From assembly GCA_944325145.1 (NCBI GenBank), contig CALYDL010000001.1, forward strand, positions 1-64,000: a DNA stretch of 64,000 nucleotides, in the 5' to 3' direction. Position numbers and translations under genes: made by a program. Under the pieces are notes generated by a model that was not told the origin of the DNA, did not search any database, and was given only the letters and a program-made list of their open reading frames with translations. This document shows positions 26,967-28,297 of the stretch, piece by piece. The first letter of the stretch is position 1. Every line of letters begins with the position of its first letter. This DNA is from Candidatus Gastranaerophilales bacterium (GTDB lineage Bacteria; Cyanobacteriota; Vampirovibrionia; Gastranaerophilales; Gastranaerophilaceae).

Positions 26967-26996
26967 AAAGAAAAATCGCAATTAATAAATTGCGAT
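26967..26996 (-). terminator. Hairpin with T-run on the minus strand
   Basis: A perfect 9-base stem, ATCGCAATT (26975-26983) and AATTGCGAT (26988-26996), with a 4-base loop. On the minus strand it is followed by TTTTCTTT, so it reads as a terminator for something transcribed from about 27080 towards the kinase. It sits just upstream of the kinase -10 box. Confidence 0.5.
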
Positions 26997-27077
26997 TAAT
27001 GCCTTTTTCTCCATAAGTCCCAAAGCCATAGTAGCGGCTTTTATAGAATTCGTGTTTTTAGTGTCGTAGTAAGGGTT
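26982..27077 (-). other. Short coding-like frame, possible 3' remnant of a gene
   Basis: An open frame of 31 codons ends in a stop placed inside the terminator-like hairpin. Its translation (NPYYDTKNTNSIKAATMALG, then LMEKKALIAIY) looks protein-like, but the only ATGs are 15 and 10 codons from the stop, without a ribosome site. It may be the tail of a decayed gene or chance. Confidence 0.25.
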
Positions 27078-27169: not shown

Positions 27170-27269
27170 CTAAAAAGGCAATTTTAAAAAGTATATTTTT
27201 TTTATATACATGTACGAGAGATTACAAAGTTATAAAAGAGAGACTTAAGAAAGATTGGAGTAAAGACCA

Positions 27270-27758
27270 ATGGGCTGGGTTACACTGTCACTCAGAAAAA
27301 TGGTCTTGACTCAAAGGGTATCACAACTGGAAAACAGATTACTTCATTTGAGTCAGGAACAACAAACATTAGCCAACAGCTCGGCATATACCGAGAGGGC
27401 TATCGGTCTTGAAAAACAAGAAGCTTATACATCTCTTATGAATAACTACTCCGGCAGTTTGAACAATATATCGGATTTTGTATCAAGCGGAAATGCAAGC
27501 GATCCTGCATCATTGATACAATATCAAGCGCAAATGCAGCAATCACAACTTGATTATATGTACAACAAAATGGTGATTGATTCTGTATTTACACAAAAAG
27601 AACAAGCTTTGCAAGATCAGGTAAACAACAAACAAACATATGTAGAACTTGAACAAGAACAAGTAGAAACTCAATTAGAAGCGGCAAGAGCCGAACTTGA
27701 ACAATTAGATGAAGCTTGTTCACAAGATATTCAATCAAGTACGATTAGTTTAGTATAA
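27270..27758 (+). CDS. MGW-type coiled-coil protein, copy 1
   Basis: A 162-residue protein of unknown family. It opens MGWVTLSLRKM and is then mostly helix with heptad-like spacing (about 12-45 and 85-155), rich in Q, E, A and L. It has no signal peptide and no membrane segment. The single cysteine is at position 149, in ACSQDIQS. A GGAG ribosome site lies 9 bases before the ATG, after a 330-base gap. It is paralogous to the next gene almost without gaps. The C-terminal LEQEQVETQLEAARAE is identical, although the codons differ. Confidence 0.85.
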   Translation: MGWVTLSLRKMVLTQRVSQLENRLLHLSQEQQTLANSSAYTERAIGLEKQEAYTSLMNNYSGSLNNISDFVSSGNASDPASLIQYQAQMQQSQLDYMYNKMVIDSVFTQKEQALQDQVNNKQTYVELEQEQVETQLEAARAELEQLDEACSQDIQSSTISLV

Positions 27759-27811
27759 CACGATAACAAAACGATAAAACACCACAAGAAAAGGAAAAAG
27801 GAGAACACACT

Positions 27812-28297
27812 ATGGGCTGGGCAGCATTATCACTTAGAAAGATGACGCTCAAACAAAGAATCAACAACTTGGAACAAAGGCTTGTAAACATAAGCCAAGA
27901 ACTCCAATCTATGTACGATTCGTCATCTTACGCACAGCAAGCACTTGGCGTTGAAAAAACAAACGCACTTGCAAGCTTGCAACAAACTTATTCAAATAAC
28001 ACATCAACATTAGCAGGCACATATCAAGGTGCAACAGACACAGCTGCTTTGAATCAATACAACCAAGCATTGCAACAAGAACAATTATCTTTAATGTATA
28101 ACCAAATGATTCAAAATTCATTGTTCACTGCAAAAGAATCTGCAATGCAAGATTCAATAAACCAAGCAGAAACTCAATTACAATTAGAACAAGAACAAGT
28201 TGAAACCCAATTGGAAGCAGCAAGAGCTGAATATGATTCATTAGACCAAGCTTGCTCACAAGATATTCAATCGGGCGCAATCAAATTGATTTCGTAA
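27812..28297 (+). CDS. MGW-type coiled-coil protein, copy 2
   Basis: A 161-residue paralogue of the preceding gene with the same opening (MGWAALSLRKM), the same coiled-coil layout and the same ACSQDIQS tail holding its only cysteine. The middle third (about 60-85), rich in S, T and N, is the least similar part. AAAGGAG precedes the ATG by 9 bases and the gap to copy 1 is 53 bases, so they form one operon. The function is unknown. The layout would suit a self-assembling filament or a secreted structural protein. Confidence 0.85.
   Translation: MGWAALSLRKMTLKQRINNLEQRLVNISQELQSMYDSSSYAQQALGVEKTNALASLQQTYSNNTSTLAGTYQGATDTAALNQYNQALQQEQLSLMYNQMIQNSLFTAKESAMQDSINQAETQLQLEQEQVETQLEAARAEYDSLDQACSQDIQSGAIKLIS

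What the first reader, a model, noticed from the sequence alone, without database searches (positions are those of the whole stretch)
27270..28297. Tandem paralogous coiled-coil proteins with a strict MGWxxLSLRKM start and ACSQDIQS tail
Two adjacent genes encode about 160-residue proteins that align almost without gaps. The N-terminus and the last 36 residues are strongly conserved (16 identical residues at LEQEQVETQLEAARAE) and the middle diverges. Codons differ at many identical residues, so selection is on the protein rather than recent duplication. There is no signal peptide or membrane segment, and each has one cysteine near the C-terminus. This layout suits a self-assembling filament, a translocated structural protein or a scaffold. 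The preceding 330-base gap carries a palindromic motif.
Basis: partly seen in the sequence, partly recalled or inferred. Interest (0 to 1): 0.6.

Follow-up and report, generated by a model that had tools for sequence, protein, structure and literature searches.

The report
Hairpin protein family, secretion-linked gut bacteria
Two neighbouring genes of an uncultured gut bacterium (non-photosynthetic cyanobacterial lineage) encode long helical hairpins of a previously undescribed, many-copy protein family, which probably are exported by, or built onto, a hook- and filament-less flagellum-like secretion machine that almost every relative carries.

Summary
In detail: ORFs 27270-27758 and 27812-28297 (+) encode 162 and 161 aa paralogues, 53% identical, under purifying selection, conserved in all species of the genus found. 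Both are predicted two-helix hairpins; no signal peptide or membrane segment; no specific Pfam, PHROG, NCBIfam, PDB or phage match. The cysteine is not conserved, and the pair is a genus-level tandem duplication of one gene found at the same locus in at least four other genera.

They belong to a large new superfamily (7-16+ matches per genome) whose minimal form is a 109-aa hairpin (MGxAASQAR...DPxSP...IxxTFKTF); the window proteins and longer members carry extra sequence at the turn. It is in every sampled Gastranaerophilaceae genome and four related families, and in none of five other class families tested. The holders whose FlhA was examined share one clade of FlhA from a rod-bearing flagellum-type export system; the window genome has that system but no flagellin or hook. 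In 32 of 77 genomes (7 genera) the minimal gene lies 6.5-15 kb from that flhA.

Best explanation (0.45): subunits or substrates of that export apparatus, assembling outside the cell like needle/filament proteins. Export and assembly are inferred, not shown. A cytoplasmic coiled-coil role is the main rival.

The parts
27270..27758 (+). P1, 162-aa helical-hairpin protein, first of the tandem pair
   Evidence: AF2: helices 3-72 and 79-161, mean pLDDT 82
27812..28297 (+). P2, 161-aa helical-hairpin protein, second of the tandem pair
   Evidence: AF2: helices 2-70 and 77-160, mean pLDDT 88
27257..27260 (+). GGAG, likely ribosome-binding site of P1
   Evidence: sequence; upstream region conserved in relatives
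27798..27803 (+). AAGGAG, likely ribosome-binding site of P2
   Evidence: sequence
   Evidence: no Rfam match

Best explanation
P1 and P2 are two-helix hairpin proteins of a new superfamily (called here the ASQAR superfamily after its minimal 109-aa form). SHOWN by computation: common ancestry with the minimal hairpin family; predicted hairpin fold of P1 and P2; many diverse copies per genome; extra sequence at the hairpin turn; no signal peptide; restriction to lineages that carry one clade of a flagellum-derived type III export apparatus, which in the window genome has rod, MS-ring, FliE, FliH and FlhA genes but no detected hook, hook-associated protein or flagellin; synteny of the minimal member with that apparatus in 7 genera. 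INFERRED: the proteins leave the cell through this export gate, with the conserved N-terminal helix serving as the recognition segment; the conserved N- and C-terminal helices pack into a tube or sheath on the rod, in the way needle, hook and flagellin cores do; the variable insert at the hairpin tip faces outward and differs among paralogues. P1 and P2 would then be abundant short-insert subunits or secreted companions of such an appendage.
For: End-to-end profile match of the window family to the minimal family: hhalign probability 97, E=4.8e-11; reversed and eight heptad-block-shuffled controls gave E of 0.009 or worse. AF2 hairpins for both proteins. Distribution: all Gastranaerophilaceae in the phylum sample, none of the five sampled f3 genomes, and only five weak single hits outside the class; in the class panel all 14 genomes of f2, f41, f45, f46 hold it, none of 14 with other FlhA clades (f3, f42, f43), none of 8 from f40/f44, which show no FHIPEP. 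The holders' second FlhA (f1, f41, f45, f46) is one 100/100 clade. FHIPEP in 94 of 95 family genomes, flagellin in only 40 and none in this genus. Operon in G032: two FlgF/G-like, FlgB, FlgC, lytic transglycosylase-like, FliE, FliF, an unmatched protein, FliH, FlhA, FliI-type ATPase; own-genome genes for rod, FliE, FliF, FliH, FlhA. Minimal gene 6.5-15 kb from this flhA in 32 of 77 genomes, 7 genera (chance about 2% per genome, but the genomes are related). Codon usage suggests high expression: four of the top five of 165 own-genome genes by C-ending codons are members; Mann-Whitney p=4e-4. Inserts are rich in S/T/N/G/Y (41% against 27% in the core), as in many exposed surface proteins.
Against: No member matches a needle, rod, hook, EspA-type or flagellin model; the single weak needle hit of P1 (18 bits against a cut-off of 29.4) is absent from the most-matched families of the superfamily scans. 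The P1/P2 locus itself is not near export genes, and neither are most paralogues. The taxonomic association is essentially one evolutionary event, so it may be shared ancestry only. Synteny fails in the remaining genera, including the window's. The f3/f42/f43 lineages have a sister FlhA clade without the family. The slightly higher GC of the members (about 0.36 against 0.33) could contribute to the codon signal. AF2 models were monomers from 14 close sequences, and Foldseek found no specific fold match.
Confidence: 0.45

Rival explanations
1. Cytoplasmic coiled-coil scaffold: the hairpins self-assemble inside the cell (cytoskeleton, envelope organiser or chaperone-like cage) and have nothing to do with export; the association with the export system is shared ancestry.
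For: No secretion signal recognised by standard means; dispersed single genes; closest library hits are generic coiled coils, with Vipp1 and SMC among weak fold hits; the taxonomic association amounts to one clade.
Against: Long members carry large S/T/N/G/Y-rich inserts, a few with Ca-binding-like DxDxDG motifs, unusual for cytosolic scaffolds; synteny of the minimal gene with flhA in 7 genera; 7-16+ matches per genome with divergent inserts.
Confidence: 0.3
2. Secreted helical-hairpin proteins of another route, working like WXG100/ESX (type VII) substrates or secreted effectors/adhesins, independent of the flagellum-like apparatus.
For: Size (about 100 aa), hairpin fold, multi-copy habit and lack of signal peptide resemble WXG100 proteins; one marginal LXG hit among 19 compact members; weak EspC-family hit of P2, E=0.27.
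Against: No WxG motif at the turn; the conserved Trp of the window family is at position 3 and absent from the minimal family. A type VII ATPase was not searched for.
Confidence: 0.12
3. Remnant or domesticated phage/mobile structural proteins (tail, internal virion or scaffold).
For: Coiled-coil hairpins are common in phage proteins; weak fold hits to viral proteins, E of 0.007 and above; P2 alone has a weak PHROG hit of unknown function, E=4e-4.
Against: No PHROG hit for P1, no tblastn match of P2 in 50,697 phage records, conserved chromosomal synteny next to rnpA and kinase genes over several genera, purifying selection, taxon-wide retention.
Confidence: 0.05

Closest known systems
Type III secretion needle proteins (PF09392; MxiH, PrgI, YscF)
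   Same: Small helical hairpins with a proline-containing turn, no signal peptide, exported by a FlhA/SctV gate; the minimal ASQAR members (108-110 aa, turn DPxSP) have the same layout.
   Different: No sequence match above cut-off; 109 aa rather than about 80; 7-16+ paralogous matches per genome; large inserts at the turn in many paralogues; mostly not encoded in the export operon.
Flagellin (PF00669/PF00700)
   Same: Conserved terminal helices that would pack together, variable central domain, multiple paralogues, exported without signal peptide.
   Different: No Flagellin_N match; the window genome and genus have no flagellin at all; core is shorter and has its own conserved motifs.
Incomplete flagellar gene sets of Gastranaerophilales (Di Rienzi 2013, PMC3787301; Soo 2014, PMC4040986)
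   Different: Those papers read the sets as lost or reduced flagella. Here one FlhA clade with rod genes is kept across nearly all sampled species, with or without flagellin, which fits a retained machine; no protein family had been linked to it in the papers held.
WXG100/ESX proteins
   Same: About 100-aa helical hairpins, multi-copy, exported without signal peptide.
   Different: No WxG turn motif and no detected type VII context.

Membership tests
Type III secretion needle (PF09392) | Match to the family model above its curated cut-off | tested here: not met
   P1 18 bits against 29.4, P2 no hit; not among the 25 most-matched families in scans of 69 members or of 19 minimal members
Type III secretion needle (PF09392) | Helical hairpin | tested here: met
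   AF2 of both window proteins; minimal members not folded, inferred from the alignment
Type III secretion needle (PF09392) | Encoded within, or exported by, a type III system | tested here: inconclusive
   Minimal member 6.5-15 kb from flhA in 32 of 77 genomes, not inside the operon; export not testable here
Flagellin | Flagellin_N domain PF00669 | tested here: not met
   Pfam scans list none for P1/P2; no PF00669 match anywhere in the own genome
WXG100 / ESX | WxG motif at the hairpin turn | tested here: not met
   Alignments A1, A5, A7
WXG100 / ESX | EssC-type ATPase in the genome | not tested
Phage structural protein | Homologue in phage records or PHROG families | tested here: not met
   none for P2; none for P1, only weak unknown-function hits for P2; only weak generic coiled-coil fold hits
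ASQAR superfamily (new, defined here) | End-to-end profile homology of N- and C-terminal helices to the 109-aa form | tested here: met
   hhalign E=4.8e-11 with negative controls of 0.009 or worse

The most novel reading that the evidence does not exclude
The gut cyanobacterial lineage keeps a dedicated flagellum-derived type III machine that ends in a rod and lacks hook and filament; it exports and displays a large, diversified set of helical-hairpin proteins unrelated to known needles or flagellins, forming a new kind of bacterial surface appendage or secreted repertoire. P1 and P2 are two of its short-insert subunits.
Probability: 0.3. Interest if true: 0.82.

Novelty: new variant of a known kind. 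Interest (0 to 1): 0.55.

Why it matters
Gastranaerophilales are common but poorly cultured gut bacteria. Their incomplete 'flagella' have been read as decay. If this family is what the conserved machine exports, it would give that machine a purpose, identify what these cells show to the host or to neighbouring microbes, and add a family of axial or secreted proteins to the type III field. The claim is directly testable by metaproteomics and in vitro assembly.

Tried and rejected
Needle homology: the weak PF09392 hit of P1 was followed up and not reproduced. Phage origin: judged unlikely. PDB sequence and fold searches: only generic coiled coils. Rfam and tRNA scans: nothing at the locus. A small conserved ORF antisense to the intergenic block was considered and dropped because the frame looked broken in L009 (read by eye).

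Full report
OBSERVATION. The two ORFs are present as described: P1 27270-27758 (162 aa) and P2 27812-28297 (161 aa), both on the + strand, 53 bases apart, each with a purine-rich ribosome site. They are 53% identical with four gap positions (E=4e-57). Identity is 58% over the first 40 residues, 41-48% in the middle and 74% over the last 38. Only 42 of 87 identical residues keep the same codon, and orthologues evolve with dN far below dS, so the pair is an old duplication under purifying selection. The single cysteine is lost in about half of the proteins of the genus alignment.

ORGANISM AND LOCUS. The closest public relatives are 'Candidatus Gastranaerophilales' and 'Ca. Galligastranaerophilus' assemblies (94-96% identity for P2). 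The pair lies at the same place in all the assemblies of this group examined: rnpA, a P-loop kinase, a divergent nucleotide kinase, P1, P2, an FAD-linked oxidase and a MATE-type transporter. In other genera of the family (g22, g36, g37, g39) one family member sits next to the same kinase genes, so the tandem is a genus-level duplication. The palindrome upstream is a conserved hairpin with compensatory changes between the divergent genes; it looks like a terminator and is not linked to the proteins.

FAMILY. A third full-length paralogue is at G000:C2:50680-51219, and a 20-sequence alignment (A1) finds further, shorter matches in the own genome on contigs C4, C20 and C45. These led to a second group of 232-448 aa proteins starting MGxAASQARxLxLTAR and ending DNVExTFKTF, with larger relatives elsewhere (open frames up to 780 aa), and to a minimal form of about 108-110 aa, present once in the window genome (L103:6472-6795) and in many copies in families f41, f45 and f46. 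Profile comparison of A1 with the minimal form aligns both ends over the whole length with the extra residues in the middle: E=7.7e-11, repeated as 4.8e-11, while the reversed profile and eight heptad-block shuffles, which keep composition and periodicity, give 0.009 or worse. The resemblance is therefore not just coiled-coil composition. AF2 predicts two long helices with a short turn for both window proteins (mean pLDDT 88 and 82). No curated family matches specifically, nor does any solved structure, phage record or viral fold.

LINK TO AN EXPORT APPARATUS. FHIPEP (FlhA/SctV) is present in 94 of 95 Gastranaerophilaceae genomes, while flagellin is present in only 40 of 95 and absent from the window's genus. 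Full-length FlhA sequences fall into two types: a canonical flagellar one (about 870 bits) in a subset, and a second one (about 720 bits) nearly everywhere. In a 29-sequence tree the second type from f1, f41, f45 and f46 is one fully supported clade, next to a separate clade from f3, f42 and f43. The superfamily occurs in every f1 genome of the phylum sample and in all 14 tested genomes of f2, f41, f45 and f46, and in none of 14 genomes of f3, f42 and f43 nor of 8 from f40 and f44 (FHIPEP status). The FlhA type of f2 was not examined. The second-type operon is intact in G032: two FlgF/G-like proteins, FlgB, FlgC, a lytic transglycosylase-like protein, FliE, FliF, an unmatched protein in the FliG position, FliH, FlhA and a FliI-type ATPase. 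The window genome holds the same rod set on contig C12 and the FliE-FliF-FliH-FlhA set split over contigs C16 and C5, and Flg_bbr_C finds only two proteins there, both rod-like, against up to eight matches including hook-sized ones in flagellated relatives. In 32 of 77 genomes, from seven genera, the minimal superfamily gene lies 6.5-15 kb from this flhA, as a neighbour and not inside the operon in the loci read (L161, L163). These genomes are related, so this is conserved synteny, not 32 independent events. Of 165 own-genome genes, four of the five with the strongest C-ending codon preference are superfamily members (p=4e-4 in a slightly wider gene set), which suggests high expression; GC differs slightly.

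MECHANISM. Putting these together, the most likely reading is that the superfamily consists of subunits or substrates of this hook-less, filament-less flagellum-type export machine: the conserved terminal helices would form the packing core, and the insert at the hairpin tip would be exposed, as in flagellin or needle-like assemblies. Homology, predicted fold, distribution and synteny are shown computationally; export, assembly and surface exposure are inferred. The main rival is a cytoplasmic coiled-coil role with only shared ancestry behind the association.

KNOWN WORK. Di Rienzi et al. [quoted passage not shown] Soo et al. 2014 (PMC4040986) reported that six of nine Gastranaerophilales had only a subset of flagellar genes and inferred loss of functional flagella. 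Searches of the held library found no paper on a type III system or on this protein family in the group; subscription papers and preprints outside the library were not searched. Whether the apparatus is a decaying flagellum or a retained secretion device is therefore open, and the near-universal retention of its FlhA in species without flagellin favours the second.

VERDICT. Real, new as a family, probably part of a known kind of system used in an unusual form. Confidence in the export/appendage reading is 0.45.

Noticed in passing
G000:C1:101021-102052 (L100:8995-10443, - strand), 482 aa: A membrane-less FHIPEP paralogue holding only the C-terminal FlhA-like domain, seen in many genomes of the family; it could be a soluble docking platform for export substrates.
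   Followed up: partly
window 26974-27045: Conserved hairpin with compensatory changes plus an adjoining conserved block of about 40 nt between divergent genes; no Rfam family. Possibly a terminator, attenuator or small RNA of the divergent kinase gene.
   Followed up: partly
L219:8453-9490 (G000:C12): 345-aa protein without family match directly upstream of the rod genes, in the position where a length-control (FliK-like) protein might sit.
   Followed up: no
L102:1413-2492 and L223:4690-5637: 315-359 aa protein between FliF and FliH with no Pfam match, in the FliG position of the type-b operon.
   Followed up: no
L103:7250-8062; L161:4585-5403; L163:4886-5707: A conserved 270-aa protein (starting M(S/A)YKND) and a 90-aa basic protein accompany the long and minimal ASQAR genes in a four-gene cluster in several genera.
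   Followed up: partly
G092: 23 Flagellin_N matches in one genome, far more than in its relatives.
   Followed up: no
L042:1564-3276 (G000:C2) and L100:14221-16623 (G000:C1): 570-aa and 800-aa coiled-coil proteins with DxDxDG-type calcium-binding-like motifs and no apparent signal peptide; possible further export substrates.
   Followed up: no
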